Shown here: piece after piece, positions 1,817-47,326 of the stretch
How the letters are laid out: each line of letters begins with the position of its first letter
How positions within the stretch are numbered: the first letter of the stretch is position 1
NCBI RefSeq assembly: GCF_017641085.1
Contig: NZ_JAEPPI010000002.1
Span: forward strand, 434,001 to 498,000
From: Gracilimonas sp.
Lineage (GTDB): Bacteria > Bacteroidota > Rhodothermia > Balneolales > Balneolaceae
DNA length: 64,000 bases
Reading direction: 5' to 3'
Position numbers and translations under genes: made by a program
The notes under the pieces: generated by a model
Database searches by the model: none
What the model saw: only the letters and a program-made list of their open reading frames with translations
Told to the model about the DNA's origin: nothing

Positions 1817-1822
1817 AATATT

Positions 1823-2473: not shown

Positions 2474-2494
2474 TACTGCTTGTTCATTTTACAA

Positions 2495-4057: not shown

Positions 4058-4069
4058 TTATGCTCCCCT

Positions 4070-4945
4070 TTACTCATTCATGACTTTATTATACGATTCT
4101 CTGCCGACTTCCAATATTTCTTTGGCGTGATCAAAATCGAACATGCCGCTGGCATTTCGGGGTATTTCAATCAGCTTGTCTGGTTTATGGATATCGATCA
4201 TCAGTTCGGTGAGCCGATCCTGGGTAAAACTGAAGGTGCTGTCCATGAGCTCAATGAGTGAAAAAGACTCTTCTTCCTGCTCTGTTTTTTGTTTCTTTTT
4301 CCGCTTTTCTCTTACCGCATCAGGCAACAGGTTCTCAAACCATTGTTGTACTTCCTGAATACGATCCGGGCCGGGTTTTCTGTCATATGCCGGATTGTAC
4401 CTTCCGTTCAGGTTTACCGCTACAATGATAGCATCGTCCCGTTTTTCCACAAGATTTATGGGAAGGGGATTGAGCACGCCGCCATCTACCAACACCCGGC
4501 CGTTATCAACTACAGGAACAAAAAATCCCGGAATAGAAACGGAGGCTCTCAGTGCCTTATATAAATCTCCCGACTTAAAATGGACCTCCTCGTTGTTCTT
4601 CATGTCGGTGGCAACAGCCGTAAAGGGAATTTCAAAATCCTCAATACTGAATTTTCCGGTTACCTCCAGGTGCTTGGCAAAAAGCTTTTCTCCTTTTATA
4701 AATCCCTGCTTGGTGAAGGTGAAATCCAGCAGTTCAAAAACATCCCTGCGGGAAAGACTGGTGAGCCATTTTTTGTATTCCGGTAGCTGCCCCGCTGCAT
4801 AGATACCCCCAACAACAGCACCCATTGAGCAGCCAATTACTTCGATGATTTCATATCCTTGTTTTTCCAGTTCCTCGATAACGGCAATATGAGCAATCCC
4901 GCGTGCACCGCCACTTCCTAAAACTAAATGGACTTTCTTCTTCAT
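4070..4945 (-). CDS. patatin-like phospholipase family protein (RssA-like)
   Basis: A 291-residue patatin-fold serine acyl hydrolase. The oxyanion glycine motif GSGGARG is at residues 10-16, the nucleophile elbow GCSMG at 38-42 and the catalytic dyad Asp in DGG at 154-156, so all catalytic elements are present. There is no signal peptide, suggesting a cytoplasmic or membrane-associated enzyme. It overlaps the upstream phosphatase-fold gene by 4 bp (ATGA type) and sits 12 bp before glpD, so translational coupling is likely. Acting on phospholipids or lysophospholipids is inferred from the family and from neighbouring glpD; the true substrate is unknown. Confidence 0.92.
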   Translation of the reverse strand: MKKKVHLVLGSGGARGIAHIAVIEELEKQGYEIIEVIGCSMGAVVGGIYAAGQLPEYKKWLTSLSRRDVFELLDFTFTKQGFIKGEKLFAKHLEVTGKFSIEDFEIPFTAVATDMKNNEEVHFKSGDLYKALRASVSIPGFFVPVVDNGRVLVDGGVLNPLPINLVEKRDDAIIVAVNLNGRYNPAYDRKPGPDRIQEVQQWFENLLPDAVREKRKKKQKTEQEEESFSLIELMDSTFSFTQDRLTELMIDIHKPDKLIEIPRNASGMFDFDHAKEILEVGRESYNKVMNE

Positions 4946-5829
4946 ATTGATTTCAACATTATCTCTTTAACATCAGTGAGACTTTCTACCTGATCAAAAT
5001 CTGCGCTGATTTCACCCAATATAAACAAGGGCACTTTATTTCGTGTATGTGTTTTTGTGGAGAGGTCTTCCAGGTTGCCATGATCACTGGTGATAACCAG
5101 GGTATCTGAGCTGCGCTTTTCTTTAATGATTTGCAGAAGAAACTCATCCAGCGGTTTCAGCACCCGTTCGGCATCTTCCGGGCTTTGGTTGTGGCCGGCT
5201 TTGTCGGTCAGGTAATATTCATAGAGCACCAGGTCATAATCAGGTACTACATTCAGCAGGCGATTTGCGGCCTCGTTTGGGGTGATTTTCGGGATATCAA
5301 TGCCCAGTTTCTCACGCCAGGCATTTTGCACAATTTCAGCGGTAAGAGCAGTTTCATTCAGAACATCTTCGGTGGAATTCAGCTTCAGGTCTGCACTTTT
5401 GGTCATTAACGTCGTACAGCTCCATCGGTTTCTTTTTTGAGCATGCTCAAAAAAGATGGGCGGATAAGCGTTCATGAAATATGGTTTCTTGCCCATCTCC
5501 TTCACCCCATGAAAAACACTCTCTTTCTTTAGGAAAGGCTTGATCCCTGAGTGAGGGAAAGGACCAAAATGCTTTCCAATTTCTTTGGCAGCATTTCGTC
5601 CGGTAAAAAGAGCCGTTTGCCCGGTTCCGCTTTGGGGTAATCCTTCTACTCCCAAGTTGGCATCTATCGGTTTATAAAGATGATCTTTCTGCTGTACCGG
5701 CTTTGCTTCTTTGCTGAAATGACCATCGGTAAGAATTTCAAACGACTCATACCTGTTTTCAAAAAATGGATTAGAAGAATCTTTCTCACCAAGCCCAACT
5801 CCATCTATAAATATGAATATAACCGCCAT
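4942..5829 (-). CDS. alkaline phosphatase superfamily metalloenzyme
   Basis: A 295-residue protein of the alkaline phosphatase / cofactor-independent phosphoglycerate mutase superfamily. Metal-ligand motifs are visible in order: DGVGLG at residues 9-14, a GTGQTALFTG block containing the probable nucleophile Thr (about residues 68-77), DKAGHNQSPEDAE, TSDHGNLED, and a final THTRNKVP His. The order and spacing match the superfamily. It lacks the large inserted domain of phosphoglycerate mutase and is shorter than phosphopentomutase. The gene starts one base after the stop of dtd and overlaps the patatin gene by 4 bp, so the three are a tight operon. Physiological substrate unknown. Confidence 0.88.
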   Translation of the reverse strand: MAVIFIFIDGVGLGEKDSSNPFFENRYESFEILTDGHFSKEAKPVQQKDHLYKPIDANLGVEGLPQSGTGQTALFTGRNAAKEIGKHFGPFPHSGIKPFLKKESVFHGVKEMGKKPYFMNAYPPIFFEHAQKRNRWSCTTLMTKSADLKLNSTEDVLNETALTAEIVQNAWREKLGIDIPKITPNEAANRLLNVVPDYDLVLYEYYLTDKAGHNQSPEDAERVLKPLDEFLLQIIKEKRSSDTLVITSDHGNLEDLSTKTHTRNKVPLFILGEISADFDQVESLTDVKEIMLKSI

Positions 5830-6270
5830 TTATTTCTCCAGGATGATGGTTACCGGTCCGTCATTTTCCAGCTTCACATTCATCATGGCTCCGAATTCTC
5901 CGGTTTGGATGCCCAGGTCAGTATTGGTTTTAAACCATTCTATCATATCCTCATACATCGGTTGGGCTTTTTCGGGTCGCGCTGCTTCTATAAAGCTTGG
6001 CCTTGTGCCCTTGTCAGCATTGGCATATAAAGTGAATTGAGATACCACCAGAATACCGCCACCCACATCTTGTACCGAATGATTCATTTTTCCTTCTTCA
6101 TCCTCAAAAATTCGTAGCTTGGCAATCTTGTTACACATCCACTCCAGTTGTTCATCGGTGTCGTCTTCGTGGATTCCAAGTAATACTAAAAGTCCCTGAT
6201 CAATGGCCCCTGTTATTTCATTATCGACCATAACGGATGATGATTTCACGCGCTGAATAACTGCTTTCAT
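5830..6270 (-). CDS. dtd: D-aminoacyl-tRNA deacylase
   Basis: Removes D-amino acids mischarged on tRNA (and Gly from tRNA-Ala), a proofreading function in the cytoplasm. The 146-residue protein has the two family signatures: SQFTLYA near residues 78-84 and the C-terminal NDGPVT cis-proline motif, plus the N-terminal MKAVIQRVKSSSVMV strand typical of DTD. Length is standard. It is the first gene of the minus-strand run and abuts the next gene without a gap. Its start codon flanks the oriC candidate, so its promoter must lie within the DnaA-box segment. Confidence 0.97.
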   Translation of the reverse strand: MKAVIQRVKSSSVMVDNEITGAIDQGLLVLLGIHEDDTDEQLEWMCNKIAKLRIFEDEEGKMNHSVQDVGGGILVVSQFTLYANADKGTRPSFIEAARPEKAQPMYEDMIEWFKTNTDLGIQTGEFGAMMNVKLENDGPVTIILEK

Positions 6271-6711
6271 AAACTGTGGATATGTGGATTACTATGTGGA
6301 TTACTCATTAACAAAAGTTGGATAACTAAAATGCCGCAAAGTTGTACACAAGTTTCCACAATCAAACCGGATAATCAACATTCAAAAAGAATAACTTTTG
6401 GTGTTGACGGTTGTGAACACGGTTTTATGTAAAAAATATATGCGTATGTGAACAACAATTTCATAACCGGTTTAACTTATTGATTTTTATCAGCAGGTTT
6501 CCCACAAAAATATCCACATGTTTTTAAGGTGGCCGGTAAAATTCAGGATAAAAAAGTTATCCACTTATCCACAGTCTCTACTACTACTACAAAAACTATA
6601 AATCTCATACTTATTGTATTATGCTGTGGAAAAGAAAGCCAAAAAGTTCTTAAAACACTCTCTTAAAGATTCTATATTTAGATTGTTCTTTAAGCAATAT
6701 ATTCTTCCAAA
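6271..6711. other. candidate chromosomal replication origin (oriC) with DnaA boxes and DnaA-trios
   Basis: A 441-bp gene-free segment. DnaA-box-like 9-mers (consensus TTATCCACA) seen: on the minus strand at 6275-6283, 6283-6291 and 6295-6303 (one mismatch each); on the plus strand at 6510-6518 (one mismatch), 6557-6565 (one mismatch) and 6565-6573 (perfect). Four bases after the perfect box come four tandem CTA triplets (6578-6589), the complement of the 3'-GAT-5' DnaA-trio, and then A+T-rich DNA to about 6625. This box / trio / A+T-rich order is that of the basal unwinding element of bacterial origins. Genes left of it are nearly all on the minus strand and those right of it mostly on the plus strand, as expected for leading-strand bias. 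dnaA is not in the window. Confidence 0.8.
6565..6589 (+). promoter_or_regulatory. perfect DnaA box plus DnaA-trio repeat
   Basis: Consensus DnaA box TTATCCACA at 6565-6573 shares its first base with an overlapping one-mismatch box at 6557-6565. A 4-base spacer (GTCT) is followed by CTA repeated four times at 6578-6589. In known origins DnaA bound at the box loads onto the single strand carrying the trios. Orientation predicts unwinding to the right, over the A+T-rich stretch 6590-6625. Confidence 0.8.
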
Positions 6712-7233
6712 ATGAATAACCAATTTCCCATAGGTAAACCTTCTTTTTCTGAGGACTACACTCAGGAAGATCTGGATCAATGGCTTGATGATATTGCTTT
6801 ATTGCCAGAGCGTATCCGAGAAGAAATTGATGGATGTTCGGATGATGTATTACTTACTCCGTATCGGGAGAACGGCTGGACAGTCAGGCAAGTAATCAGT
6901 CATTTGCTTGATAGTCATTTAAACACCATAGTTCGTTTAAAAACAGCCCTGACGGAAGATAACCCCACGATTCGACCTTACAAACAGGATGGATGGGCCC
7001 ATGTAGATTTTCAGTTCGAAATTCCATTGGAACTCACGCTGGATATGCTTGAAAATACCCATGAAATGATAGTTCGTATTTATCAAAGCCTGAATGAAAA
7101 CCAATGGGAGCGAACCTATACGAACCCAGAATCCGGAGAAACATTTACGCTGGCAAGATCTGCTTATCACTATGCCTGGCATTCCAATCATCATTTAGCA
7201 CATATCCGATTGGTTACCCAAAGTGAGGAATGA
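6712..7233 (+). CDS. YfiT/BstA-type DinB-fold protein
   Basis: A 173-residue four-helix DinB/YfiT family protein, a putative metal-dependent hydrolase or thiol-S-transferase. Family motifs are the GWTVRQVISHLLDSH block (His at the end of helix 2), the LTEDNPTIRPYKQDGWA segment almost identical to the YfiT family, and the C-terminal HSNHHLAHI with the two metal-ligand His residues. Members include B. subtilis YfiT and bacillithiol transferase BstA; thiol partner here is unknown. It is the first plus-strand gene after the oriC candidate. Confidence 0.9.
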   Translation: MNNQFPIGKPSFSEDYTQEDLDQWLDDIALLPERIREEIDGCSDDVLLTPYRENGWTVRQVISHLLDSHLNTIVRLKTALTEDNPTIRPYKQDGWAHVDFQFEIPLELTLDMLENTHEMIVRIYQSLNENQWERTYTNPESGETFTLARSAYHYAWHSNHHLAHIRLVTQSEE

Positions 7234-7250
7234 GTAATACTTAACCTTTA

Positions 7251-7274
7251 GTGTTTTAGAGCCTTCATGGCAAA
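7251..7274 (+). repeat. short dispersed intergenic repeat, copy 1
   Basis: The 24-mer starting GTGTTTTAGAGCCTTCATGG in the yfiT-like/purM gap matches 41052-41075 (GTGTTTTAGAGCTTTCGTGG) with only a few differences. The 41-kb copy has an imperfect inverted partner at 40959-40979. Both copies lie just upstream of a gene. It looks like a low-copy intergenic repeat family. Confidence 0.45.
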
Positions 7275-7291
7275 TTCAAATAAACGATTAC

Positions 7292-8299
7292 ATGAGTGAC
7301 AAGAAACAAATTACATACAAAGATTCCGGAGTAGATATCAAAGCCGGGGAAGAAATGGTAGAGTCCATTAAAGGCGTGGTTAAAGATACTCACGGACCGG
7401 AAGTGCTTTCTAACATTGGTGGCTTTGGAGGATTTTTTAAACCGGATTTAGGCTCTTACAAGAAACCGGTTTTTGTGAGTTCTGTTGATGGTGTAGGGAC
7501 TAAACTCATTGTGGCTTTTAAAGCCGGTAAGTATGATACCGTTGGGCAGGATTTAGTAAATCACTGCGTAAATGACATTGCTGTTTGCGGAGCCAAGCCT
7601 TTATTCTTTCTGGATTATTTTTCGACCGGAAAGCTGGAGCAGCATGTAGGTGTGGATGTGGTAAAAGGATTTGCCAAAGCCTGCAAAGAAAATGGTGTAG
7701 CTCTGATTGGAGGTGAAACAGCCGAAATGCCGGATATTTACGATTCCGGTGAATTTGACCTGGCCGGCACTATCGTAGGTATCGTGGATGAAGACAAAGT
7801 GATCAATGGATCCGACATTGAAAAAGATGACGTACTGTTGGGCTTCAAAAGCACCGGGCTGCACACCAATGGATATTCTCTTGCCCGAAAAGTGCTTTTC
7901 AGTAAGTATAAAGTAGAAAACTATGTAGAAGAGTTGGGAAGTACGGTAGGGGATGAACTGCTCAAAGTTCACAAGTCCTATCTGCCATTAATTACTGAGT
8001 TGAAAGAAATGAACGGGGTGAATGGTTTCTCCCATATCACCGGCGGCGGAATTGTAGGGAACACCAAGCGTATTCTCCCGGAAGGACTCAAACTGGATAT
8101 AAACTGGGACAGCTGGGAACGTCCTCCGGTATATAACCTGATCCAGGAAATCGGGAACGTACCGGAAGAGGATATGCAAGCTACCTTCAATTTAGGAATT
8201 GGACTGATTGCCGTGGTTTCTGAAGATCAGGTGGATGCTGTTACTAAAAGAGCGGAAAATTTGGGAGAAGAGGTTTTTAAGATTGGAACTGTGAGATAA
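7292..8299 (+). CDS. purM: phosphoribosylformylglycinamidine cyclo-ligase
   Basis: AIR synthetase: ATP-dependent closure of the imidazole ring in de novo purine synthesis (FGAM to AIR). The 335-residue protein shows the PurM/SelD fold pattern: a GGFGGFF glycine-rich segment near residue 43, VSSVDGVGTKL near 63, VNHCVNDIAVCGAKPLFFLD near 90-110, ALIGGETAEMP near 140 and HITGGGIVGN near 250. Length is normal. No other pur gene is adjacent; the gene stands 58 bp after the YfiT-like gene. Confident assignment. Confidence 0.97.
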   Translation: MSDKKQITYKDSGVDIKAGEEMVESIKGVVKDTHGPEVLSNIGGFGGFFKPDLGSYKKPVFVSSVDGVGTKLIVAFKAGKYDTVGQDLVNHCVNDIAVCGAKPLFFLDYFSTGKLEQHVGVDVVKGFAKACKENGVALIGGETAEMPDIYDSGEFDLAGTIVGIVDEDKVINGSDIEKDDVLLGFKSTGLHTNGYSLARKVLFSKYKVENYVEELGSTVGDELLKVHKSYLPLITELKEMNGVNGFSHITGGGIVGNTKRILPEGLKLDINWDSWERPPVYNLIQEIGNVPEEDMQATFNLGIGLIAVVSEDQVDAVTKRAENLGEEVFKIGTVR

Positions 8300-8351
8300 T
8301 AAATCGGTTAATGATTAGTTTAACTTAAAACGAACTATAGTTACCAACCTC

Positions 8352-8837
8352 ATGAAAAAACTACTTTTACTATTTACTGTTGTACTCATTAGCGGGTGTT
8401 CCATATTTAATGCCGATTCAGACGGTAAAAGTTTTGAAGCGAATATAGGATCTAAATCCTTTTCAGCTGAGGCTCTTGCCTATCAGAATGATGTGGGAAA
8501 TGCAGACATTGTTATCATTGGCAGAAAAGGAGAATGGGAAAATTCAGAAAACCTTGAGTTTTCTATTGTTGATTTTGATGGAAGCTTAGGTAAATACCAG
8601 GTTAGAAAACCTTCTTATTATTTTGTTACCGGTGGTGATGCTATCGGAACTTATGCCGGCCTTGATTACGATAGTGTGGTTCCCTCCGTCACGGTTACCA
8701 ATTACAATACTTCATCTAATAAAATCAGGGGAAGTTTTAATTTTAGAGTGGTTGTAGAGCGTTCTTTCAACAGTTATGAACCGGGTGATGAGATTTCGAT
8801 AAAGGGAAATTTTGAAGCAGAGGTGGCTCTGCCTTAA
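8352..8837 (+). CDS. hypothetical lipoprotein (DUF6252-like)
   Basis: A 161-residue predicted lipoprotein: a short basic N-terminus, a hydrophobic stretch and the lipobox LISGC with Cys16. The mature part is beta-rich and about 140 residues, containing a repeating pattern of surface-exposed strands and a C-terminal GDEISIKGNFEAEV. It resembles small secreted Bacteroidota proteins of the DUF6252 type, but I am not sure of the family. It lies between purM and a T9SS-tailed protein; no operon partner is obvious. Function unknown. Confidence 0.75.
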   Translation: MKKLLLLFTVVLISGCSIFNADSDGKSFEANIGSKSFSAEALAYQNDVGNADIVIIGRKGEWENSENLEFSIVDFDGSLGKYQVRKPSYYFVTGGDAIGTYAGLDYDSVVPSVTVTNYNTSSNKIRGSFNFRVVVERSFNSYEPGDEISIKGNFEAEVALP

Positions 8838-8927
8838 AAAAACCACTTATATTTCATTTCTAAGGCTGTTAAACTATTTGGCTGAATGTGCTGTTATTGA
8901 GAGAAGCCGATAAAAAATTCAGTCTGT

Positions 8928-10202
8928 ATGAAAAAATTTCTGCTTTTCTTTTTATGTCTTTTCAGTACAAGCACAGCCTTTGCTCAATGGGAAGAGGTGT
9001 ATAGAACTGATTCGTACGTTTTTGGCGGACTCTACTTTCTGGATGATGACCTGGGTTTTGCCCTTTACAACGGGTACGATCATTTCTACAAAACAAATGA
9101 TGGCTTTGAGACCAGCGAATTTCTTCAAATACCGGAAGTATATAACATTGAAGAATTCACTTTTTATGATTCTTTAAACGGACTGGCTTTAGGCCCGGAA
9201 GACAATCTCCATAGAACCAAAGATGGGGGACAATCATGGTCGGTAGATCTGCTTGGGGTGGATGAGCCACTTTACCTGGAGTCTATGTTCACCATAGGCC
9301 GGGATACCATTTATGTGGGTGGTAGAAAATTACTGAGATCGACCAATGGTGGAGAATCGTGGGAAACCATAGCTGATTATAGCACTTTGTTCGGTAACCA
9401 TGGAGAAACCATGTATGAGCGGGAAACCCTGATCGATTTCAAATTAGGGGGCGGACAGAGAAACTTGTTTATAACTAATTATTTTGTGTACAGAACTTCG
9501 GATGACGGCGAGAATTTAAATCCGCTTCCCCTTCCGGTAAAAGAGAAAAATATACTCTCCCATTATTTTGTGGATTCTTATATAGAGGGAAATTCGGTGT
9601 ATGTTCTGTCAAATTCCCGCGGATATCCAAAAAAGCTTTTTAAGTCTCATGATTTAGGAAATACCTGGCAGGTTATCGAGCTCCCTCTTAATGATTATAT
9701 ATCCATTAATGGAATCAGTGAGGATACGGTATTTGTTTCCGGGGATAAGGGTGTGTTGCTGGAAACAACAAATGGATTTAACAGCTGGACCAAAACGGTT
9801 ATCGACCCCGACACGCAAATTAATGATGTTCTTTTCACAAAAAATAAAACAGGGTACCTGGTTACCAATCAACGGATTTACAGAAACAACCGATTTAGAG
9901 TGATAACCTCTTCTGAGGATAAAGACCCAACCCAAGCTCACGGTATCAGTTTAGAACAGAACTATCCCAATCCTTTTAATCCTACCACAAATATTAGGTT
10001 TACTTTATTACAACCTTCCAGCGTTGTGATTTCTGTCTATAATATTCTGGGTAGAAAAGTGGATCAATTGTATAGCGGACTAAAATCGACAGGAAATCAT
10101 ACTATCACCTTCGATGCCTCCCAACTTTCCGGCGGTATCTACTTCTACGAGTTGAAAACATCCTCTTTTGTAGAAAGAAAAAAGATGACACTGATTAAGT
10201 AA
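8928..10202 (+). CDS. secreted Asp-box (BNR/YCF48-like) repeat protein with T9SS sorting domain
   Basis: A 424-residue secreted protein. Signal peptide at residues 1-19 (ends TAFAQ). The body carries degenerate Asp-box repeats: KDGGQSW, STNGGESWE, SDDGENLN and SHDLGNTWQ, arranged as in YCF48/sortilin-type beta-propellers. The last 80 residues form a type IX secretion A-type sorting domain: LEQNYPNPFNPTT, then VVISVYNILGRKV and a final KKMTLIK. This predicts export through the outer membrane and surface attachment or release. No T9SS machinery is in the window. Ligand or enzyme activity is not evident. Confidence 0.88.
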   Translation: MKKFLLFFLCLFSTSTAFAQWEEVYRTDSYVFGGLYFLDDDLGFALYNGYDHFYKTNDGFETSEFLQIPEVYNIEEFTFYDSLNGLALGPEDNLHRTKDGGQSWSVDLLGVDEPLYLESMFTIGRDTIYVGGRKLLRSTNGGESWETIADYSTLFGNHGETMYERETLIDFKLGGGQRNLFITNYFVYRTSDDGENLNPLPLPVKEKNILSHYFVDSYIEGNSVYVLSNSRGYPKKLFKSHDLGNTWQVIELPLNDYISINGISEDTVFVSGDKGVLLETTNGFNSWTKTVIDPDTQINDVLFTKNKTGYLVTNQRIYRNNRFRVITSSEDKDPTQAHGISLEQNYPNPFNPTTNIRFTLLQPSSVVISVYNILGRKVDQLYSGLKSTGNHTITFDASQLSGGIYFYELKTSSFVERKKMTLIK

Positions 10203-10389
10203 AAAAAATAGGGAAAGCCAACTATCTTTGAACCACAATTTACGGGATAAAAGAATGACCAGGATTGTAAAGGTCAAATCAAGGTAATCTCATAATCCTT
10301 CTAATCATGGTTCAACATATTTTCTGATAAAAACATCCTTCTGCCCTATCTTAGATGTCAATTCTAAATGAAGTATTAATGCATCTTAC

Positions 10390-11481
10390 ATGATCAACAG
10401 GTTTCGGGATTTTGTGCGTGCTAACCAGCGGTATTTACCGGTGGTCTTTTTTATGGCCGGTTTTGTGTGGGATTCGCTGACTCTTGGACGAATTGATCGC
10501 TTATACGATCGCATCATTTTATGTACATACCTTAGTTCACTTACCGTTTGTCTGTACCTATTCAATCTTGCTGATGATGGAAAATGGGAAGGTACCTTTT
10601 TTGAGAAATATCAGGATTATCTGCCGTTAGCCATTCAGTTTTTTTTGGGAGGATTATGCAGCGCATACGTGATTTACTTTTCCCGAAGCGTATCCTTTTC
10701 CAAAACGGTCATTTTCTTCATCATCCTTGTGGTGTTGTTATTTGCAAATGAGTTGCTCAAGAAACGGATCTCTAACAAGTACCTTCAGTTCAGCGCGTAC
10801 TTTTTTGTGAACTTTACCTTCTTCACCTTCTTTGTACCGATGGTAGTTGGAACCATAAATCAGTTTATTTTTATGCTGTCGGGTGCCATTAGTTTAGGGA
10901 TCACGCTTGGGCTGATTATTTATATCTACAACGTCAGCCCATCAACCCGAAAAGAAATAAGTTTTGGTAAGATGCTGGGCTTCATTTTTGGAATATACCT
11001 GCTTATCCATACGTTTTACTTCTTCAACTTAATTCCTCCGGTTCCTCTTGCACTGGATGAAGGCTTGGTTGCTCATCATGTTGAGCGCAGCGATGACACG
11101 TATGTTGTGACCTATGAGCGTGAGCCCTGGTATAAAATCTGGAAGGATAACCGACATCAGTTTGAATATGAACCGGGATCTAATGTGTATGTATTTACGT
11201 CCATTTTTGCTCCATCTGATTTCAGAAAAGATGTATTGCACCGGTGGAAATGGTATAGTCCACATACCAATAATTGGGAAGTAATAGACGAAATCGGTTT
11301 CGAAATAACAGGCGGCCGGGATGAAGGATTTCGGGGATATACCTACAAGAATAAGATGATGGAAGGAGAGTGGAAGGTGGACGTAATCACCAAAGAAGGA
11401 CTGGTACTGGGAATCATAAGTTTTGAAATAGATATTGATTCAACTGCCCAGCCTTACCGTTTATCCAGTCGAACTTTTTGA
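10390..11481 (+). CDS. DUF2914 domain membrane protein
   Basis: A 363-residue inner-membrane protein: about six to seven hydrophobic segments between residues 13 and 220, then a soluble C-terminal DUF2914 domain (about 260-352) identified by HRWKW, the GGRDEGFRGYT segment and GEWKVDVITKEGLVLG. DUF2914 domains occur alone or fused to membrane parts in many phyla; no function is established. It is followed by a strong bidirectional terminator shared with the convergent PstS-like gene. The 187-bp gap upstream shows no clear element beyond a TATCTTAG sequence that might be a -7 box. Confidence 0.85.
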   Translation: MINRFRDFVRANQRYLPVVFFMAGFVWDSLTLGRIDRLYDRIILCTYLSSLTVCLYLFNLADDGKWEGTFFEKYQDYLPLAIQFFLGGLCSAYVIYFSRSVSFSKTVIFFIILVVLLFANELLKKRISNKYLQFSAYFFVNFTFFTFFVPMVVGTINQFIFMLSGAISLGITLGLIIYIYNVSPSTRKEISFGKMLGFIFGIYLLIHTFYFFNLIPPVPLALDEGLVAHHVERSDDTYVVTYEREPWYKIWKDNRHQFEYEPGSNVYVFTSIFAPSDFRKDVLHRWKWYSPHTNNWEVIDEIGFEITGGRDEGFRGYTYKNKMMEGEWKVDVITKEGLVLGIISFEIDIDSTAQPYRLSSRTF

Positions 11482-11494
11482 GCTTTGGATATAA

Positions 11495-11526
11495 AAAAAG
11501 CCGATTAATTTTATAACCGGCTTTTT
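11495..11526. terminator. bidirectional rho-independent terminator
   Basis: Inverted arms AAAAAGCCG (11495-11503) and CGGCTTTTT (11518-11526) enclose a 14-base loop. The A-run and T-run on either side serve both the DUF2914 gene (plus) and the convergent PstS-like gene (minus). Confidence 0.8.
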
Positions 11527-11571
11527 CTTAATCGTAAAAGATAAGATCGTACTACTCTATTTTTATCAGGA

Positions 11572-12003
11572 TTATTCGATGGTTAGAACCTTAACTCCGG
11601 ATACATCCGCAGCTTCAGATACATAACCAACCGCATCCGGGTACGATTTCACAAAAGCAATTACATCAGCATCGCTTGATCTTTCCAAAGGTGCAGTTCC
11701 GGCACCTGAAAAGGCCGCTTGCTGCCAGTAACTTCGGATGGATCCGATACTCTGTCCGTGCACTTCCAAAGAAAAAGCAGCACGTGTTGTAGAACGGATA
11801 CCCTGATCAACAGGTGTAATATCAGAACCACTATTCCATTTGGTTTTCTTCTTCAGAAAAATGTCTGAGAGGTCTTTTTTGGAAATGCTTTCGGTAGCAT
11901 TCGCTTCGTTCACAATCACTTTAAAAGATTGCGCAGCCAGTTCACTCATTCCAAAAACAAGGAGGAGGACAGCTGTGATAAATATTTTTTTCATGGTGTT
12001 CAT
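11572..12003 (-). CDS. short PstS-like phosphate-binding periplasmic protein
   Basis: A 143-residue exported protein: signal peptide 1-24 ending LAAQS, then one lobe of the PBP-like phosphate-binding fold (VIVNEANATESISKKDLSDIF, KTKWNSGSDITPVD, YPDAVGYVSEA). Full PstS proteins are over 250 residues, so this is a half-size version of a known family of about 140 residues. It lies 10 bp after the porin-like gene on the same strand, a pairing that suggests a shared envelope role such as anion capture or sensing. No pst transporter genes are here. Phosphate specificity is inferred. Confidence 0.82.
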   Translation of the reverse strand: MNTMKKIFITAVLLLVFGMSELAAQSFKVIVNEANATESISKKDLSDIFLKKKTKWNSGSDITPVDQGIRSTTRAAFSLEVHGQSIGSIRSYWQQAAFSGAGTAPLERSSDADVIAFVKSYPDAVGYVSEAADVSGVKVLTIE

Positions 12004-40958: not shown

Positions 40959-41075
40959 GCCACCAAATCACTAAAGCACGAATCGGGTTTTAAAATTCCA
41001 TTGGGTAAACGAGCCCGATAAAGCAAAATCTGCAAATCAAAAACAATTTTTGTGTTTTAGAGCTTTCGTGGCCAA
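40959..41075. repeat. imperfect inverted repeat, dispersed-repeat copy 2
   Basis: GCCACCAAATCACTAAAGCAC (40959-40979) pairs imperfectly with GTGTTTTAGAGCTTTCGTGG (41052-41071) across a 72-base gap. The right arm resembles 7251-7274. It lies in the uvrB-tyrA gap and ends just before tyrA. It may mark a folded RNA leader or a small palindromic repeat family. Confidence 0.45.
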
Positions 41076-41088
41076 CAAAACGACGCAA

Positions 41089-42222
41089 ATGTCCCACCGA
41101 CATAAAGATTTAGAATCGCCCCGAAAGCGAATAGATGAAATTGACGAACAAATTCTGGACTTACTCTCCGAGCGGGGTGAAATTGTTCGGGATGTCATTA
41201 AACGAAAAGTAGAGAACCAGCTGCCTGTTTTTGTGCCGGCCAGGGAAGAGGAAAAGTCGAAAGCTTTCAAAGAGCTTGCCCAAAACAAAGGGATTGACCC
41301 GGAATGGGCGGAAGACTTTCTGCGGATGATCATGACGGCCTCGCGGGCAACGCAATCGCAGGAAACCTTTCCCATTGCTACCGAAGAGCCGAAGCATATT
41401 CTGTTTATAGGTGGCGAAGGTGGAATGGGTAAGCTGTATAAGAGAATGGCTGATCAAACAGGGCACATAACCTATTCTATAGACAAAAAGAACTGGCATG
41501 AGCTGGAAGAAATGTCGCCAAAGCTGGATATGGTAATCGTTACGGTACCAATCAACGTAACGGAAAGCGTTATTGAGAGATTGGGTGGACGTCTGAAAAA
41601 AGACACCATTCTTGCCGACTTCACCAGTAATAAATCAAACCCTATTCAGGCTATGCTACAGGCGCATGAGGGACCGGTAGTTGGATTACACCCCATGCAC
41701 GGCCCGGATGTTCAGAACTTGTCCAAGCAGCTGATGGTTTTTTGCGATGCCCGCGATGGAGAGCAGGCAAAGTGGTTCCAGGACCAATGTGAGCTTTGGG
41801 GAATGCGGGTTATACATGCAGATCCCGAAAAACACGATCATGTGATGCACCTGGTTCAGGGGCTGCGACACTTTGTGGCGCTCCTGCACGGTTCGTTTAT
41901 GGAAGAGTATGATTTGAAACCGGCTGATATGCTCGATTACTCCTCCCCCATTTATCGCGCAGAATTGATGATGACGGGCCGGATTTTTGCCCAGGATGCC
42001 GAGCTGTATGCCGATATTGTATTTGCCAATAAAGAGCGCCGGGAGTTATTGCTAAAGTTCTTTGATCATCACAAAAAACTGGTGCAAATGGTAGAAAAAA
42101 ATGACCGGGAAGGATTCATCAAAGAGTTTGAGGGGGTAACCGATTTCTTTGGAAAGTTTGCGACCCAAGCACTTAACGAGAGCGGATATTTAATAAATCG
42201 CCTGGCAGACCGTTTTGCCTAA
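41089..42222 (+). CDS. tyrA: bifunctional chorismate mutase / prephenate dehydrogenase (T-protein)
   Basis: A 377-residue fusion enzyme. Residues about 5-90 form an AroQ-type chorismate mutase (LESPRKRIDEIDEQILDLLS, IVRDVIKRKVE, REEEKS). From about 100 the prephenate dehydrogenase part begins with ILFIGGEGGMGKLYKRMA, the NAD-binding motif, followed by VGLHPMHGPDV and HFVALLHG with catalytic His residues. The arrangement is colinear with E. coli TyrA. Start at ATG 41089 rather than 41050, which has only a leader of poor quality. Converts chorismate to 4-hydroxyphenylpyruvate for tyrosine. Confidence 0.94.
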   Translation: MSHRHKDLESPRKRIDEIDEQILDLLSERGEIVRDVIKRKVENQLPVFVPAREEEKSKAFKELAQNKGIDPEWAEDFLRMIMTASRATQSQETFPIATEEPKHILFIGGEGGMGKLYKRMADQTGHITYSIDKKNWHELEEMSPKLDMVIVTVPINVTESVIERLGGRLKKDTILADFTSNKSNPIQAMLQAHEGPVVGLHPMHGPDVQNLSKQLMVFCDARDGEQAKWFQDQCELWGMRVIHADPEKHDHVMHLVQGLRHFVALLHGSFMEEYDLKPADMLDYSSPIYRAELMMTGRIFAQDAELYADIVFANKERRELLLKFFDHHKKLVQMVEKNDREGFIKEFEGVTDFFGKFATQALNESGYLINRLADRFA

Positions 42223-42289: not shown

Positions 42290-44998
42290 ATGAAAAATTT
42301 ATTACCACTTACCGTATTAAGCCTGTTATTATTTTCGGGGATTGCAATAGCTCAAGATCAGCCTGTTCTGAAAATAAATAGTATTGAAAGCGCTTCCGCA
42401 CAGAAAGCTTCGGGCGATGATGCAGACAAAACGTACTTCAGTTTAAGTGAAGATGTTCTTGAAAACGATCAGTTTCAGGAAGGTGTTCTTTTTGAGCTGG
42501 AAACAGGGAACGATCAGGCTGATGTTTTGAGACTGGTGAAGAAAAGATCATACCGTCCGGGAATAACTTCTTATATGGCAGCGGATATAGAAAATCCGGA
42601 GAATAAATTTTCATTCTCTTACGGTGATGGCCGACTTGTCGGAATGTACCACGAAGCTCATAATAGCACCGTCATGTTCGCCGTGGATAACGAAATTGGA
42701 AAGCCTTTCTTAACCCGAAACAAATCGATTTTAGGGGAGGCAAAAGCCTGTGCTGTTCATGAAGGCGAGAATTTAGATGACATCCCGTATTACAAGACTC
42801 GTTTCAATCGAGATAAAATGAGTCGCGCCAAACAAAAGAATGCGGTTAGTTATGGGGCGCCTGCTTACGCTTCGGTTGAGGACAGTATCACGATTGATTT
42901 AATGCTGGTATATACGGACAGTGCAGAATCATGGGCCAACAACTCCGGTTTTGGAAACATCGAGTTTGTGTTGGCTCAGTCTATGAATTTATCTCAAACG
43001 GCCTTGGATAACAGTGAAACAGGTATTGAGCTTCGCTTGGCTCATGTTCACAAAACCATATACCGCGGCGACAATAATGAAGATATAGATGCCGTAACCC
43101 ATTTAAGGCGATTTACACAGAATGAAGACAATCCTTCCTTTGGGCAAAGTAATGATGAATACAATGGATATATGGAAGAGGTTCATGACCTTAGAGATGA
43201 GTACGGAGCAGACCTTGTAGCACTTATTATGAGCGAGCCGAATACCGGTGGCATTGCCTGGGTGCTGAATAGTGTAGAAGGATCTCCGATCAGAGGGTTT
43301 TCAGTGAACAGGGTTCAGCAGGTAGCTTCAAATTATACACTTGTTCATGAGATAGGCCATAACATGGGTAATTCTCATTCCAGAACACAATCCCAGGCAG
43401 CCGCCTCAGAAAGCGGAGCACTTTTTCATTACTCTGTAGGATTCCAAAATATACCTGCTAGTTACGTAACGGTAATGGCATATAATGAGCCGGGACAACA
43501 GCTGCAGGAGGCTCCTATATTTGCCAGTCCAAATTTAACGTTTAATGGATCCCGGGCAGGCTCTGAAGACAGAAACACGCCGGCAAACAGTGCGCTGACC
43601 CTAAAACAGATTAAAAGGTCCATTGCCGGATACCGTGCTACCATGGTTGATTCTCCTGTTGTTTCCGTTTCCACAAATGAAATCGAAGTTACACTGAACC
43701 GTGAAGACGAGATCACGATTCCATTCAGTATTATAAACGATGGAAACAGCGGGCTGGTTTGGGATATAGATTTCGACTTTCCAGGACAAACCGTCAGCAA
43801 AGTTAATACAGCCTCAAACCCGGTAAGTAATCTTGAACCGGAGTTTATTAAGGATCCGGTAAGAGTCCCGGCAAATTATTCTGTTTATGAAAGGTCTATG
43901 CAAAAATCAGCCCTGAATGAAGAAGTGCTTTATAGTACCTCTTTCGAAAACTTCCCATCCGGGGAATTTGGAGGATATAGAGAATGGAGGTCGTTAACTA
44001 ATACGGACTTTATTATTGAGCAGGGCAATGCCAGCGATGGAAGCCGGAACCTTCGGTTAAGCCATGATCCAACTTCTGACAACACACAATATGTGTCAGC
44101 CCCGTTTTTTGGATATCTGCCATTTGGGAACTACGAACTTAGCCTCGACTTCAAAATTTCAGGCGCAACGGCTCGGTCAGAAACCTTCGACTTCTACATT
44201 TTTGATGGAAAAAACGGACAGTTTTCAAGTGGTGTGATTATCTCCGACAGTACACTGTATGCTGCAGGACTAAATGAAAATGACCAGCTGGTATTTTTTG
44301 GCACGAATGTAGTCATGACTACAGACACGTATTCCAACCTTAGGATTGTGTACAATACGGAAGACGAGGTGATACAATATTATTACAAAGGAAATATGGT
44401 TTTAGAAACCGGTTTCCTATTCGGAAGAACACCAAGTGAGCTACAGGTACTTCACAGAAATGAAGTTTCCGATACGCACTTTGATGTGGATAATATTGAA
44501 CTGAAGCAGTTGAGTAGTCCATACAACTGGCTTGCTGTTAATAACATGAGCGGGGTAGCTTTTGAGGACAGCAGCAGTGATGCGGAATTGGTCTTTAATA
44601 CCCGGGGTATCTCTGCCGGTACGTATGAAACCGTTCTTCAGGTGAGCACTAATGATCCTGTTAACAGAATCATTGAGGTTCCGGTTACTTTGAATGTGAA
44701 CCAGGAAGTTTCCAATGAAACAGAGGAAGTGCCGAATCAGGTGGCATTGCAGCAGAACTATCCAAACCCATTTAATCCAACTACCAGCATTCAGTTTAAC
44801 CTGAACGAAGCAAGCAAGGTGAAGCTGGAAGTATTTAATATTCAGGGACAGAAAGTAGCTTCGCTCCTAAACGAAAACCGAAGAGCGGGGGAACACCGAA
44901 TTACTTTTAATGCACAAAACCTGTCCAGCGGCATCTATATTTACAGGTTACAAGCCGGCGCTCAAACGTTAACCCGAAAAATGGTTTTAATTAAATAA
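42290..44998 (+). CDS. secreted zinc metalloprotease with propeptide and T9SS sorting domain
   Basis: A 902-residue exported protease. Signal peptide 1-21 (IAIAQ). The propeptide (about 22-190) has EGVLFEL at 64-70, PGITS at 90-94 and a lone Cys in KACAVHE (Cys154) resembling a cysteine switch. The catalytic domain of reprolysin-like metzincin type carries HEIGHNMGNSH with the three zinc His at 353, 357 and 363. A jelly-roll-like domain (about 545-750) follows, and the tail has NYPNPFNPTTSIQFN and a final KMVLIK, a T9SS sorting domain. The next gene begins after 1 base. Its own propeptide-like relative is that lipoprotein. Confidence 0.92.
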   Translation: MKNLLPLTVLSLLLFSGIAIAQDQPVLKINSIESASAQKASGDDADKTYFSLSEDVLENDQFQEGVLFELETGNDQADVLRLVKKRSYRPGITSYMAADIENPENKFSFSYGDGRLVGMYHEAHNSTVMFAVDNEIGKPFLTRNKSILGEAKACAVHEGENLDDIPYYKTRFNRDKMSRAKQKNAVSYGAPAYASVEDSITIDLMLVYTDSAESWANNSGFGNIEFVLAQSMNLSQTALDNSETGIELRLAHVHKTIYRGDNNEDIDAVTHLRRFTQNEDNPSFGQSNDEYNGYMEEVHDLRDEYGADLVALIMSEPNTGGIAWVLNSVEGSPIRGFSVNRVQQVASNYTLVHEIGHNMGNSHSRTQSQAAASESGALFHYSVGFQNIPASYVTVMAYNEPGQQLQEAPIFASPNLTFNGSRAGSEDRNTPANSALTLKQIKRSIAGYRATMVDSPVVSVSTNEIEVTLNREDEITIPFSIINDGNSGLVWDIDFDFPGQTVSKVNTASNPVSNLEPEFIKDPVRVPANYSVYERSMQKSALNEEVLYSTSFENFPSGEFGGYREWRSLTNTDFIIEQGNASDGSRNLRLSHDPTSDNTQYVSAPFFGYLPFGNYELSLDFKISGATARSETFDFYIFDGKNGQFSSGVIISDSTLYAAGLNENDQLVFFGTNVVMTTDTYSNLRIVYNTEDEVIQYYYKGNMVLETGFLFGRTPSELQVLHRNEVSDTHFDVDNIELKQLSSPYNWLAVNNMSGVAFEDSSSDAELVFNTRGISAGTYETVLQVSTNDPVNRIIEVPVTLNVNQEVSNETEEVPNQVALQQNYPNPFNPTTSIQFNLNEASKVKLEVFNIQGQKVASLLNENRRAGEHRITFNAQNLSSGIYIYRLQAGAQTLTRKMVLIK

Positions 44999-44999
44999 T

Positions 45000-45518
45000 A
45001 TGAATACTCAAAAAAAGAGCGCTATCAAGATCTTTGTAATTGGGTTTTCTTGTTTGTTGGCTATTTCCTGTGGAAAAACAGAGCAAAAGAAAGGTCAGGA
45101 TGCAGAACCTAACGGCCAAGCCCAAGTATTGAATGAAGAAACCACCCAGCCGGAGAAGTTGTATGTGGAAATGGATGTGGAAGCTATCCCCTCATTAAAA
45201 AAAGGGGATACTTTACAGATTAAGATGGCTGATGGTGAAGGGGATGACATGAACCTTAAAATCCGGCGCATTCAGGAAACGATTCCCGGAATTACGTCCG
45301 TTTCTGCATTTGTAGAAAATAGTGAAAAGGGACAGGCCACACTCACGGTGAAGGGGCAAAAAGTATCCGGCATTATTGACCTGTTTGATCAAAAGAAGAA
45401 ATATACTTTTGGTTACGATAGCACTATGAATTCTTACTACCTCAGCCTGATGAATCCTGAAGATATGGACGTACTCCCGGGCAGCGCTCCTGTCACGCCC
45501 AATGAAAAAGGGAATTAA
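45000..45518 (+). CDS. lipoprotein resembling the metalloprotease propeptide (possible inhibitor)
   Basis: A 172-residue lipoprotein with a possible lipobox at Cys24 (LAISC). Residues 67-140 align to residues 64-133 of the upstream protease: KGDTLQIKM with EGVLFELET, then IPGITSVSAFVEN with RPGITSYMAADIEN, KVSGI with RLVGM and YTFGYD with VMFAVD. No catalytic motif is present. One base separates it from the protease stop, so it is coupled. I infer a membrane-anchored protein that binds the protease as a propeptide mimic, shielding the producer or helping fold it. The family is not named in anything I know. Confidence 0.7.
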   Translation: MNTQKKSAIKIFVIGFSCLLAISCGKTEQKKGQDAEPNGQAQVLNEETTQPEKLYVEMDVEAIPSLKKGDTLQIKMADGEGDDMNLKIRRIQETIPGITSVSAFVENSEKGQATLTVKGQKVSGIIDLFDQKKKYTFGYDSTMNSYYLSLMNPEDMDVLPGSAPVTPNEKGN

Positions 45519-45529
45519 ACAGCGGTTGA

Positions 45530-46591
45530 TTAATCCTTCATTCGGCTAAACCGAAGGGCTGAGATCATCCAGTTGGGAAGATTCTTTTTGGGGTCCCGCT
45601 TGGTCATATCAATGTACCACCCAATCTTTTTGATGATCGGGACTTTATGCGTTTCCACAAACTCGATGAGGGTTCCGTCGGGACCTTCCACATAGGTAAA
45701 ACGTCCTGCGGCTTCGCCCATATCAAAGCTGTTGGCAGAATCTACGGTGAACGGAAACCCATTGGATTCCAGCTCTTCTTTCAGGGCATCCATTCCCTGT
45801 ACATCAAAACAGAGATGGATAAAACCCAGGTCTCCCCAATATCGGTCTTTAAAAAGTTTACGAGGTTCGCGCTCCTGAACTTCGATGAGTTCTATTTCAG
45901 TAGGACCAAACATTTGGCTGAACCCACCCTGCCGTGGCTGGGAATGACGCAGTAAAACACGCCGGTACCGGTCTTCTCCACCGGGCAATCCTTTGAAGTC
46001 ATCAAATGCAGCGGTTTTATCATACACGACTTCATCATAACCCAAAACATCGGAATAAAGCTTACGGGCTTTTTCAATATCCGTGGAGCCGATGATGGCC
46101 CCAACAACTCCGCCGGTAGAAGTCGGTGTTTTGGTTTTAAAGAAATCTAGCCCTTTAACTACTTGCCAGATGTTGCCGTACAAATCCTTTACAAAGAAGT
46201 TATAATCACCTGCGGGGTTTTTCTTAAGAGGAGTGAGGATGTCCAAACCTGCAGCTTCCATCTCATCATAGGTTCCGGGCACGTTAATGGACTTGATCTT
46301 GCCGACGTTGATTCCCAAATCACCCATCATTAAGTCAAAGTCAGCGGGTTGAGGAGTGCGGCTGGTGTATTGCCAGATTTCAAATCCACCCCCGCCTTTC
46401 ATATTCAGAGCCAGCACGGCCGTTCGGTCATGCGCTTCGCCGCCGGTGTATGGAGTCATCAGTTCAGCTGTGGCAGAGTCTTCAAACACTTTGATGTCCA
46501 TCCCAAAATGACGGCGATACCAATCAGTGGCTTTGTGGACATCCGGAATACCGATTCCAATTTGCTGAATACCTGAAATTACTTTTTCCAT
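45530..46591 (-). CDS. VOC-family protein with two glyoxalase-fold modules
   Basis: A 353-residue protein. The start at 46591 is chosen (MEKVISGIQQIGIGIPDVH) since the longer reading adds a polar 22-residue lead. Two VOC modules are visible: residues about 5-130 (IGIGIPDVHKATDWYRRHFG) and about 145-310 (GAIIGSTDIEKARKLYSDVLGY, FIHLCFDVQGMDALKEEL, GPDGTLIEFVE). These are metal-binding glyoxalase/dioxygenase folds; hydroxyphenylpyruvate dioxygenase-like or epimerase-like activity is possible. Coded 78 bp after the tlpA-like gene on the same strand. Substrate unknown. Confidence 0.87.
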   Translation of the reverse strand: MEKVISGIQQIGIGIPDVHKATDWYRRHFGMDIKVFEDSATAELMTPYTGGEAHDRTAVLALNMKGGGGFEIWQYTSRTPQPADFDLMMGDLGINVGKIKSINVPGTYDEMEAAGLDILTPLKKNPAGDYNFFVKDLYGNIWQVVKGLDFFKTKTPTSTGGVVGAIIGSTDIEKARKLYSDVLGYDEVVYDKTAAFDDFKGLPGGEDRYRRVLLRHSQPRQGGFSQMFGPTEIELIEVQEREPRKLFKDRYWGDLGFIHLCFDVQGMDALKEELESNGFPFTVDSANSFDMGEAAGRFTYVEGPDGTLIEFVETHKVPIIKKIGWYIDMTKRDPKKNLPNWMISALRFSRMKD

Positions 46592-46669
46592 AAAATTAGT
46601 GTGAAATGGATGAAGGTTAGAGGGCGCCAAGGTACGTTTTTTTGATTTCGATGTCACAAAAAAAGCAGA

Positions 46670-47326
46670 TCAGCGACTATCGGAAGAATCAGTATCTGCC
46701 GCATTCCATTCAGCAGGCTGCAGGGAAGAGACGGCACTCAAGAAATCCTTAAAGCGGTCCGTGTTATAGTTGGCCATGCCCTGATGCTTTAGCACAATTT
46801 CACCGGTAGGGGAGATAACATAGGTAGTTGGAACAATGGATGCGTCATAAACGCGGGGCTTGCTACGTACAGAATACACCGGAAAGCTAAACTCCTTCCG
46901 TTCTATAAAATCCCGGGCTTTCTGGGGATCCCGATCCAATGAGGCCATCACAAAAACGATATCCTCACTCTGAATGTCATCATGCAACCGCTGGATGTTC
47001 GGCATCTCAGCAATGCAAGGCGGACACCAAGTCGCCCAAAAATTCAGGAAGATGGTTTTGCCCTTGAAGTCCGAAAAAGAAACAGGGGTACCATCAAGGG
47101 TAAGCAGGTGCATGTTGTAATCCGCGTTATTTCCATGTACAACAGACTCCTCAACATCGGGCTGAAAGAGGCCGGTGTATAAAATCACGCTTTGAAGCTT
47201 TCCGATTACTTCTGTGTGATACCCGGTTCCGTATAAAACAGCCCCGATCAGAAATATAGCTCCCCATTGCAGGAGTTCTTTTTTAAAGGAGGATGTCTTT
47301 TTTGCCTTGTGCTCTTTTTCATTCAT
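46670..47326 (-). CDS. TlpA-family thiol-disulfide reductase
   Basis: A 218-residue membrane-anchored thioredoxin-fold protein. One N-terminal TM segment (about 17-34), then an AhpC/TSA-Redoxin type domain with active site WATWCPPCIAE near residues 92-102, and VPTTYVISPTGEIV. This group reduces periplasmic disulfides for cytochrome c maturation or envelope repair. Its neighbours on the same strand are VOC (downstream) and nitroreductase (upstream), not cytochrome genes, so role is not clear. Confidence 0.9.
   Translation of the reverse strand: MNEKEHKAKKTSSFKKELLQWGAIFLIGAVLYGTGYHTEVIGKLQSVILYTGLFQPDVEESVVHGNNADYNMHLLTLDGTPVSFSDFKGKTIFLNFWATWCPPCIAEMPNIQRLHDDIQSEDIVFVMASLDRDPQKARDFIERKEFSFPVYSVRSKPRVYDASIVPTTYVISPTGEIVLKHQGMANYNTDRFKDFLSAVSSLQPAEWNAADTDSSDSR

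What the first reader, a model, noticed from the sequence alone, without database searches (positions are those of the whole stretch)
42290..45518. Secreted metalloprotease next to a lipoprotein that resembles its propeptide
Residues 67-140 of the lipoprotein (45000-45518) line up with residues 64-133 of the protease propeptide, with shared PGITS-type core, EN segment and spacing. The genes are one base apart. The protease also has a lone Cys in KACAVHE, a possible cysteine switch, which the lipoprotein lacks. A dedicated membrane-anchored propeptide mimic for a T9SS-exported protease would be a new self-protection or chaperone arrangement.
Basis: partly seen in the sequence, partly recalled or inferred. 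Interest (0 to 1): 0.7.

Follow-up and report, generated by a model that had tools for sequence, protein, structure and literature searches.

The report
Membrane-tethered twin of a protease prodomain
Next to a secreted protease, a bacterium of the Balneola group keeps a lipid-anchored protein built like the protease's own safety cap, probably to hold or silence the enzyme; similar partners are known in other secretion systems, but here the protease has both a built-in cap and a separate, membrane-tethered one.

Summary
BLASTP between the two proteins sees nothing, but profiles of 24 stand-alone relatives and 21 protease propeptides match at 99% probability, E 3.7e-18; 60 shuffled controls stay far below. 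Of 28 stand-alone genes found in the family, 25 sit beside a metzincin gene. The protease's lone Cys154 is invariant in 31 of 31 aligned proteases. By predicted fold the lipoprotein is closest to the small chain of PDB 6o38, taken to be CpaB, chaperone of the secreted metzincin CpaA (Z 11.4). Best reading: a lipid-anchored trans-prodomain serving a T9SS protease that keeps its own cis prodomain, probably holding or inhibiting it. Partners of cis-bearing proteases in the family have a lipobox and lack the switch Cys (22 of 22); where the cis prodomain is missing the partner is upstream without lipobox (3 of 3), and two keep a tail Cys. Three genomes keep the lipoprotein with no intact metzincin found, which favours protection. 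Lipoprotein inhibitors (potempins) and CpaB-type chaperones are known, so this is a new variant. Function is inferred.

The parts
42290..44998 (+). T9SS-type secreted M12B-like metzincin (902 aa)
   Evidence: Pfam Reprolysin_3 6.6e-13, Por_Secre_tail 1.9e-14; nearest NCBIfam Mep72, 100 bits, below its cut-off of 645; fold of residues 1-467 closest to 6o38_A, Z 23.7, then profragilysin and ADAM17 zymogens, Z 17.9-20.6
42290..42355 (+). Sec signal peptide (by eye), residues 1-22
   Evidence: sequence; Q22 nearly invariant
42422..42769 (+). cis prodomain, residues 45-160, homologous to the lipoprotein
   Evidence: profile hit 2e-30, with a profile that includes it; hhalign
42749..42751 (+). Cys154, the only Cys of the protease, presumed cysteine switch
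   Evidence: invariant in 31 of 31 aligned proteases; sole Cys
42875..43645 (+). metzincin catalytic domain, about residues 196-452
   Evidence: Pfam; fold match
43346..43378 (+). zinc motif HEIGHNMGNSH, residues 353-363
   Evidence: sequence; H353, E354, H357, G360, H363 invariant
44759..44986 (+). T9SS type A sorting domain, residues 824-899
   Evidence: Pfam PF18962 and TIGR04183
45000..45518 (+). lipoprotein with prodomain fold (stand-alone or trans prodomain), 172 aa
   Evidence: no Pfam or NCBIfam family over its cut-off
45069..45071 (+). lipobox Cys24 (LAIS-C-GKTEQ)
   Evidence: nearly invariant column; Cys at a lipobox-like place, read by eye, in 22 of 22 cis-paired and 3 of 3 orphan forms of the family; small residue before it in 24 of these 25, L037 has C-C
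45153..45464 (+). prodomain-like beta core, residues 52-155
   Evidence: block mean pLDDT 83-97; VIA match 52-164 to 6o38_M
45465..45515 (+). conserved C-terminal tail (DVLPGSAPVTP...), lying opposite the switch Cys but without Cys; presumed active-site plug
   Evidence: G161 nearly invariant; G161 stands opposite C154 in the last aligned column; [LI]xGxx[PA] in 17 of 22

Best explanation
The lipoprotein is a stand-alone, lipid-anchored copy of the prodomain fold: a trans-prodomain that works like CpaB. It is encoded with a T9SS-exported metzincin that also keeps its own cis prodomain. Shown by computation: homology to the cis prodomain, conserved gene pairing, lipid anchor signal, invariant switch Cys in the cis copy and its absence from the trans copy, CpaB-like fold. 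Inferred: in the periplasm or at the outer membrane it docks on the prodomain site of the catalytic domain and lays its conserved C-terminal tail across the active-site cleft without the zinc-thiolate bond. It thereby holds, or reversibly inhibits, protease that has folded, lost its cis prodomain or strayed before or during export, and so protects the envelope. A foldase role is possible, but less needed here than for CpaA because a cis prodomain is present.
For: Homology. Fold: 6o38_M, Z 11.4 over 107 residues (17% identity, rmsd 5.1); next ADAM17 prodomains Z 7.2-7.7, the other rows 6.7 or less. Pairing: 25 of 28 stand-alone genes found in the family lie next to a metzincin, 12 of them 1-3 bases away. 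Switch Cys 31 of 31 in cis but absent from the tail in 22 of 22 cis-paired lipoproteins of the family. Tail conservation, with a PPLxPP-like tail also in trans-prodomains of Thiorhodococcus and a Desulfocapsaceae MAG. Orphans: L037 (protease gene reduced to remnants, lipoprotein intact), L049, L050; dN/dS (Nei-Gojobori) about 0.18 for L036-L037 and L049-L050, with no metzincin match at E<=1e-10 in those genomes. Literature (passages): CpaB tail blocks the CpaA site (PMC7542363); BamI binds Mep72 and relieves its toxicity in E. coli (PMC4334185).
Against: No assay and no predicted complex. In the family's fetched loci 34 of 60 metzincin ORFs have no stand-alone partner within 1.5 kb (some lie at contig ends), including both other metzincins of the window's own genome, so the partner is not a general need. 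CpaB is not found by sequence profiles; that link is fold only, with a high rmsd, and Foldseek itself gave no match at E<=0.001 (best 6.4e-3). ADAM17 prodomain matches to the lipoprotein lie under Z 8, where the tool warns of mere common arrangements. For CpaA-CpaB the documented need is for stability and secretion, and PMC7542363 assumes that substrate displaces the CpaB tail, which speaks for a chaperone rather than a tight inhibitor. The dN/dS values cannot date selection after the loss of the protease, and dS is near saturation for L049-L050.
Confidence: 0.55

Rival explanations
1. Export chaperone (holdase or foldase) of the CpaB type: the lipoprotein mainly helps the protease fold or stay competent for the T9SS, with inhibition as a side effect.
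For: Best fold match is the small chain of 6o38, taken to be CpaB; CpaB is needed for CpaA secretion and its gene lies just downstream, as here (PMC4713064, passages). Conserved order and tight spacing of the genes: downstream in 18 of 22 cis-paired systems of the family.
Against: The protease already has a cis prodomain; 34 of 60 family metzincin ORFs have no partner nearby; three genomes keep the lipoprotein with no intact metzincin found.
Confidence: 0.27
2. Surface tether: the lipoprotein holds the secreted protease on the cell surface through the prodomain site, rather than blocking it.
For: Lipobox-like Cys in 25 of 25 cis-paired and orphan forms of the family; charged residues after the lipid Cys resemble surface-export signals of Bacteroidota lipoproteins (recalled, not tested).
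Against: T9SS type A cargo is normally anchored through its own sorting domain (recalled); the tail opposite the switch Cys is conserved, which a pure tether would not need.
Confidence: 0.1
3. Chance resemblance: an unrelated small lipoprotein.
For: BLASTP between the two proteins is not significant; Pfam and NCBIfam know no family.
Against: Profile comparison with shuffled and natural controls; profile search over the fetched loci without unrelated hits; same order of structural elements.
Confidence: 0.02

Closest known systems
CpaB, membrane-anchored chaperone of the metzincin CpaA (Acinetobacter, type II secretion; PDB 6o38)
   Same: Gene directly downstream of a secreted metzincin; membrane-anchored; best fold match (Z 11.4); tail reported in the catalytic site, like a zymogen (PMC7542363, passages)
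   Different: CpaB has an N-terminal transmembrane helix and serves T2SS; the present protein is a lipoprotein beside a T9SS cargo that also has a cis prodomain; no sequence match to CpaB found. PMC4713064 assigned CpaB to the SRPBCC superfamily by DELTA-BLAST, not to prodomains
BamI, partner of Mep72 (Pseudomonas aeruginosa)
   Same: Adjacent co-transcribed gene; binds the metzincin and relieves its toxicity in E. coli (PMC4334185, abstract and passages); Mep72 is the nearest NCBIfam model of the protease
   Different: bamI precedes mep72, and the domain scheme given for Mep72 is signal sequence, metzincin domain and two carbohydrate-binding domains (passages); BamI sequence was not obtained here, so relation untested
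Potempins of Tannerella forsythia (beside KLIKK proteases)
   Same: Small lipoproteins encoded beside T9SS proteases, mentioned as specific inhibitors from then unpublished data (PMC7296668, passages)
   Different: Their genes precede the protease; the protease here does not end in KLIKK; fold and sequence relation not tested
Prodomains of ADAM17 and profragilysin
   Same: Predicted fold of cis prodomain plus catalytic domain matches these zymogens (Z 17.9-20.6); the lipoprotein matches the ADAM17 prodomain weakly (Z 7.2-7.7)
   Different: There the prodomain is part of the same chain as the enzyme; here a second copy is a separate, anchored protein
RhpC, partner of the M4 protease RhpP (Pseudomonas savastanoi)
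   Same: Adjacent gene; protein both inhibits the protease and helps its translocation (PMC6490944, abstract and passages)
   Different: Different protease family; 99-aa cytoplasmic protein; relation not tested

Membership tests
CpaB-type membrane-associated chaperone | Encoded beside its cognate secreted metzincin | tested here: met
   One base downstream; conserved
CpaB-type membrane-associated chaperone | CpaB fold | tested here: met
   6o38_M Z 11.4, 107 aligned, rmsd 5.1; Foldseek best E 6.4e-3, prob 1.00, 6o38_H; that the small chains are CpaB is inferred from length and title
CpaB-type membrane-associated chaperone | Sequence similarity to CpaB | tested here: inconclusive
   No CpaB hit with profiles A1, A5, A6 at E<=10
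CpaB-type membrane-associated chaperone | N-terminal transmembrane anchor | tested here: not met
   Lipobox Cys instead
CpaB-type membrane-associated chaperone | Client of type II secretion | tested here: not met
   Client has a T9SS type A sorting domain; SprA in the genome
CpaB-type membrane-associated chaperone | Needed for secretion; tail in the active site | not testable with these tools
   No complex prediction or assay available
BamI | Client metzincin without its own propeptide | tested here: not met
   Window protease has a cis prodomain; the split forms L060, L179, L182, L096, L118 do fit this
Potempin | Lipoprotein encoded beside a T9SS protease | tested here: met
   but downstream, not upstream
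Potempin | Partner of a KLIKK protease | tested here: not met
   C-terminus is KMVLIK
Potempin | Inhibits the co-expressed protease | not testable with these tools
   needs an assay
M12B-like metzincin zymogen with cysteine switch | HExxHxxGxxH and Met-turn | tested here: met
   Invariant H353, E354, H357, G360, H363, M396 in 31 proteases; that M396 is the Met-turn is recalled
M12B-like metzincin zymogen with cysteine switch | Unpaired prodomain Cys | tested here: met
   C154 invariant in 31 of 31, sole Cys of the window protease
M12B-like metzincin zymogen with cysteine switch | That Cys binds the catalytic zinc | not tested
T9SS type A cargo | Por_Secre_tail sorting domain and a T9SS in the genome | tested here: met
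   PF18962 1.9e-14, TIGR04183 8e-14, SprA 1547 bits

The most novel reading that the evidence does not exclude
The prodomain fold has been put to a division of labour. The cis copy gives one-shot latency through its cysteine switch. The lipid-anchored, Cys-free trans copy is an immunity protein that reversibly silences the mature enzyme of self and kin. Cells that have lost the protease keep it, so these T9SS metzincins and their lipoproteins would behave like an effector and immunity pair. The same fold would underlie CpaB, BamI and ADAM or fragilysin prodomains.
Probability: 0.22. Interest if true: 0.8.

Novelty: new variant of a known kind. Interest (0 to 1): 0.6.

Why it matters
It links three things that the papers seen here describe apart: cis prodomains of ADAM- and fragilysin-like metzincins, the CpaB type of secretion chaperone, and lipoprotein partners of T9SS proteases. 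One fold appears in cis, in split form and in trans. The natural series (cis only; cis plus lipoprotein; split; lipoprotein only), with the Cys and the lipid anchor changing largely in step, makes it directly testable which features give latency and which give protection. No Pfam or NCBIfam model covered the stand-alone forms tried, so such partners may be overlooked beside metzincin genes of other phyla.

Tried and rejected
Pairwise BLASTP of the two proteins: no signal, so the case rests on profiles. Pfam for the lipoprotein and eight stand-alone relatives, NCBIfam for the lipoprotein and seven: no family over its cut-off; weak hits such as DUF5065 (14.4 bits, cut-off 26.8) rejected. PDB sequence searches with stand-alone queries: only weak hits to proteins of other kinds, several through the signal region, no CpaB. 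Phylum-wide search with A1: 65 of 394 genomes at E<=0.001, but many hits outside the family cover only the N-terminal part of the model (the lipoprotein signal) and were not counted as relatives. Plasmid collection: no match. Recent-duplication idea (lipoprotein copied from its neighbour's propeptide): not supported; stand-alone and cis rows separate with 3 label changes against 23.6 in shuffles, though columns are few and many forks open. A simple rule 'the stand-alone partner keeps the Cys whenever the cis prodomain is missing' was rejected: 3 of 6 split systems have it (L060, L179, L137 yes; L182, L096, L118 no). My first lipobox pattern was too strict and missed several; replaced by reading all Cys contexts. 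I first took the L037 protease deletion to span residues 107-604 from overlapping hits; one search shows it starts near residue 64. Potempin structures were not seen among the fold matches; this excludes nothing. Literature: the CpaA-CpaB structure paper and the 2017 CpaB paper are not held; they are known here only through passages of other papers. Searches for earlier reports of a propeptide-like lipoprotein partner of T9SS proteases; none seen in the listings, which show the top rows only, and most subscription papers are not held.
Full report
What is there. At 42290-44998 lies a 902-residue protease with signal peptide, N-terminal prodomain, M12B-like metzincin domain with HEIGHNMGNSH, a long C-terminal part and a T9SS type A sorting domain. 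One base after its stop codon begins a 172-residue lipoprotein (45000-45518). The genome carries the T9SS translocon protein SprA (1547 bits, cut-off 200).

Is the resemblance real? BLASTP between the two is not significant. The lipoprotein searched through 92 genomes of the family hits 31 at E<=0.01, and the hits fall into two classes: short ORFs, and N-terminal parts of long ORFs that turned out to be metzincins. Profile against profile: Prob 99.5, E 3.2e-23 (25 stand-alone vs 31 cis rows). Some of those cis rows had been fetched because the lipoprotein hit them, so I repeated it with 24 stand-alone and 21 cis rows from loci fetched through a stand-alone hit, aligned separately: Prob 99.0, E 3.7e-18, score 123.3; 60 column shuffles reached at most 18.0, and five other segments of the same proteases at most 16.9. 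A profile from 24 stand-alone proteins picked 121 of 5161 ORFs at E<=1e-3: 24 used in it, 79 metzincin ORFs (73 distinct, since some loci were fetched twice) and 18 others, all of which are stand-alone relatives or cut-off proteases (the column register of this profile came from a joint alignment with the cis rows). AlphaFold models have the same order of elements (lipoprotein E53-57 H60-65 E71-76 E84-95 E98-105 E111-118 E121-128 E133-140 E145-150; protease E48-52 H54-57 E67-73 E76-89 E92-99 E106-112 E115-123 E126-133 E138-142).

The switch. C154 is the only cysteine of the protease and is invariant in all 31 proteases aligned. In the profile alignment the lipoprotein's conserved tail (DVL[PEQ]G in many) ends opposite this position but has no Cys.

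Census. In the family I found 28 stand-alone genes in 26 of 92 genomes (more may exist, as only hits and neighbours of metzincins were looked at): 22 beside a metzincin with a cis prodomain, 3 beside a metzincin without one (split: L060, L179, L182), 3 with no metzincin (orphans: L037, L049, L050). All 25 cis-paired and orphan forms have a Cys at a lipobox-like place; none of the three split forms does (read by eye). A Cys in the tail: 0 of 22 cis-paired, 2 of 3 split (Fisher 0.01, not corrected for kinship). With loci outside the family (2 other Balneolia, 8 Nitrospira, L096, L118, L137) it is 0 of 32 against 3 of 6 (Fisher 0.002). Three of these outside partners (L102, L105, L137) score only E 0.013-0.024 and were taken in by position as well; in four of the eight Nitrospira loci (L102, L106, L114, L117) the cis prodomain is inferred from length alone, without a profile hit. 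In all six split systems the stand-alone gene is upstream of the protease; in 18 of 22 cis-paired systems of the family it is downstream. Against a general need: 34 of 60 metzincin ORFs in the family's fetched loci have no partner within 1.5 kb (some lie at contig ends, one shares a partner with its tandem neighbour), including the two other metzincins of this genome (L067, L070).

Orphans. In L037 the protease gene has lost about residues 64-604 relative to its relative in L036, including the catalytic domain, and is frameshifted near residue 682, while the lipoprotein is intact (L036-L037 dN 0.162, dS 0.88). L049 and L050 lie at the same place after the prephenate dehydrogenase gene with no protease (dN 0.41, dS 2.3, near saturation). 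One search finds no metzincin at E<=1e-10 in these three genomes (96%, 71% and 94% complete); a distant one could be missed. A pure chaperone has no reason to outlive its client; an inhibitor might, if kin or neighbours make the protease. This is suggestive, not proof.

Depth and spread. The tree separates stand-alone and cis rows with 3 label changes (23.6 in shuffles), so the lipoprotein does not look like a recent copy of its neighbour's prodomain, though few columns leave many forks open. Similar partners beside metzincins occur in Nitrospira (downstream, weak scores), and, upstream of proteases without prodomain, in Thiorhodococcus drewsii and a Desulfocapsaceae MAG. The last two (two sequences only) align with the lipoproteins (Prob 93.0, E 3.3e-7) and with the cis prodomains (Prob 93.6, E 2e-7), with a shared PPLxPP-like tail in the former.

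Known relatives by fold. The lipoprotein model's best PDB match is the small chain of 6o38 (VIA Z 11.4, 107 residues, rmsd 5.1, 17% identity; Foldseek best E 6.4e-3, none at E<=0.001), then ADAM17 prodomains (Z 7.2-7.7, a range in which the tool warns of common arrangements); the other rows are at 6.7 or less. 6o38 is the CpaA structure (PMC7542363, passages); that the small chain is CpaB is my inference from its length and the entry title. The protease model matches 6o38_A (Z 23.7) and zymogens of fragilysin and ADAM17 (Z 17.9-20.6). Sequence profiles do not find CpaB. Papers (passages only, abstract too for PMC4334185): CpaB is membrane-bound, encoded beside CpaA, needed for its stability and secretion, with its tail in the catalytic site like a zymogen, though those authors assume that substrate displaces it (PMC4713064, PMC7542363); BamI binds Mep72 and relieves its toxicity in E. 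coli (PMC4334185); PMC4713064's table lists the Mep72 neighbour among putative T2SS chaperones; potempins are lipoproteins before T9SS KLIKK proteases, mentioned as specific inhibitors (PMC7296668).

How it most likely works. Shown here: homology, pairing, anchor signal, fold. Inferred: the anchored prodomain docks where the cis prodomain sat and its tail covers the cleft, without a zinc-thiolate bond, so that inhibition is reversible. It guards the envelope while the enzyme is matured and exported. I put protective holding or inhibition at 0.55, chaperone first at 0.27, tether at 0.1.

Verdict. The arrangement has known cousins, so it is a new variant: lipid-anchored, T9SS-linked, and coexisting with a homologous cis prodomain.

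Noticed in passing
L055 (G037) 2543-8097 and L058 (G072) 5944-11707: Two tandem metzincins with cis prodomains lie with a single stand-alone prodomain gene.
   Followed up: partly
L182 (G029) 3491-5365: A second, split metzincin system in a genome of the same genus that also has the cis-plus-lipoprotein pair: stand-alone prodomain without lipobox upstream of a protease without prodomain.
   Followed up: partly
L179 (G055) 1948-6034 and L060 (G066) 1500-3426: Split prodomain genes that keep a Cys (LKCGG, VLCGG) at about the place of the switch: a possible cysteine switch acting in trans.
   Followed up: partly
L067 (G000 C1) 3298-6951 minus strand; L070 (G000 C2) 5467-8319: Two further metzincins of the same genome (1217 and 950 aa) with no stand-alone partner found nearby.
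   Followed up: yes
L183 (G007) 3797-5302 and L185 (G032) 516-2006: Proteases whose start looks like the end of a prodomain, with no partner found; possibly broken or misread prodomains.
   Followed up: no
window 41050-42222 and 45530-47326: The pair sits between a chorismate mutase-prephenate dehydrogenase fusion and, on the other strand, a two-domain glyoxalase-like gene and a thioredoxin-like gene; the same neighbours flank the site in L037.
   Followed up: partly
L155 (G095) 4467-5072: Stand-alone prodomain with a tail Cys outside the family, near the end of a contig; the next gene is cut off.
   Followed up: no
G195 C1:22924-23409: Weak hit (37.8 bits, model positions 7-165 of 173) inside a 3312-aa open frame of another family; not examined.
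   Followed up: no
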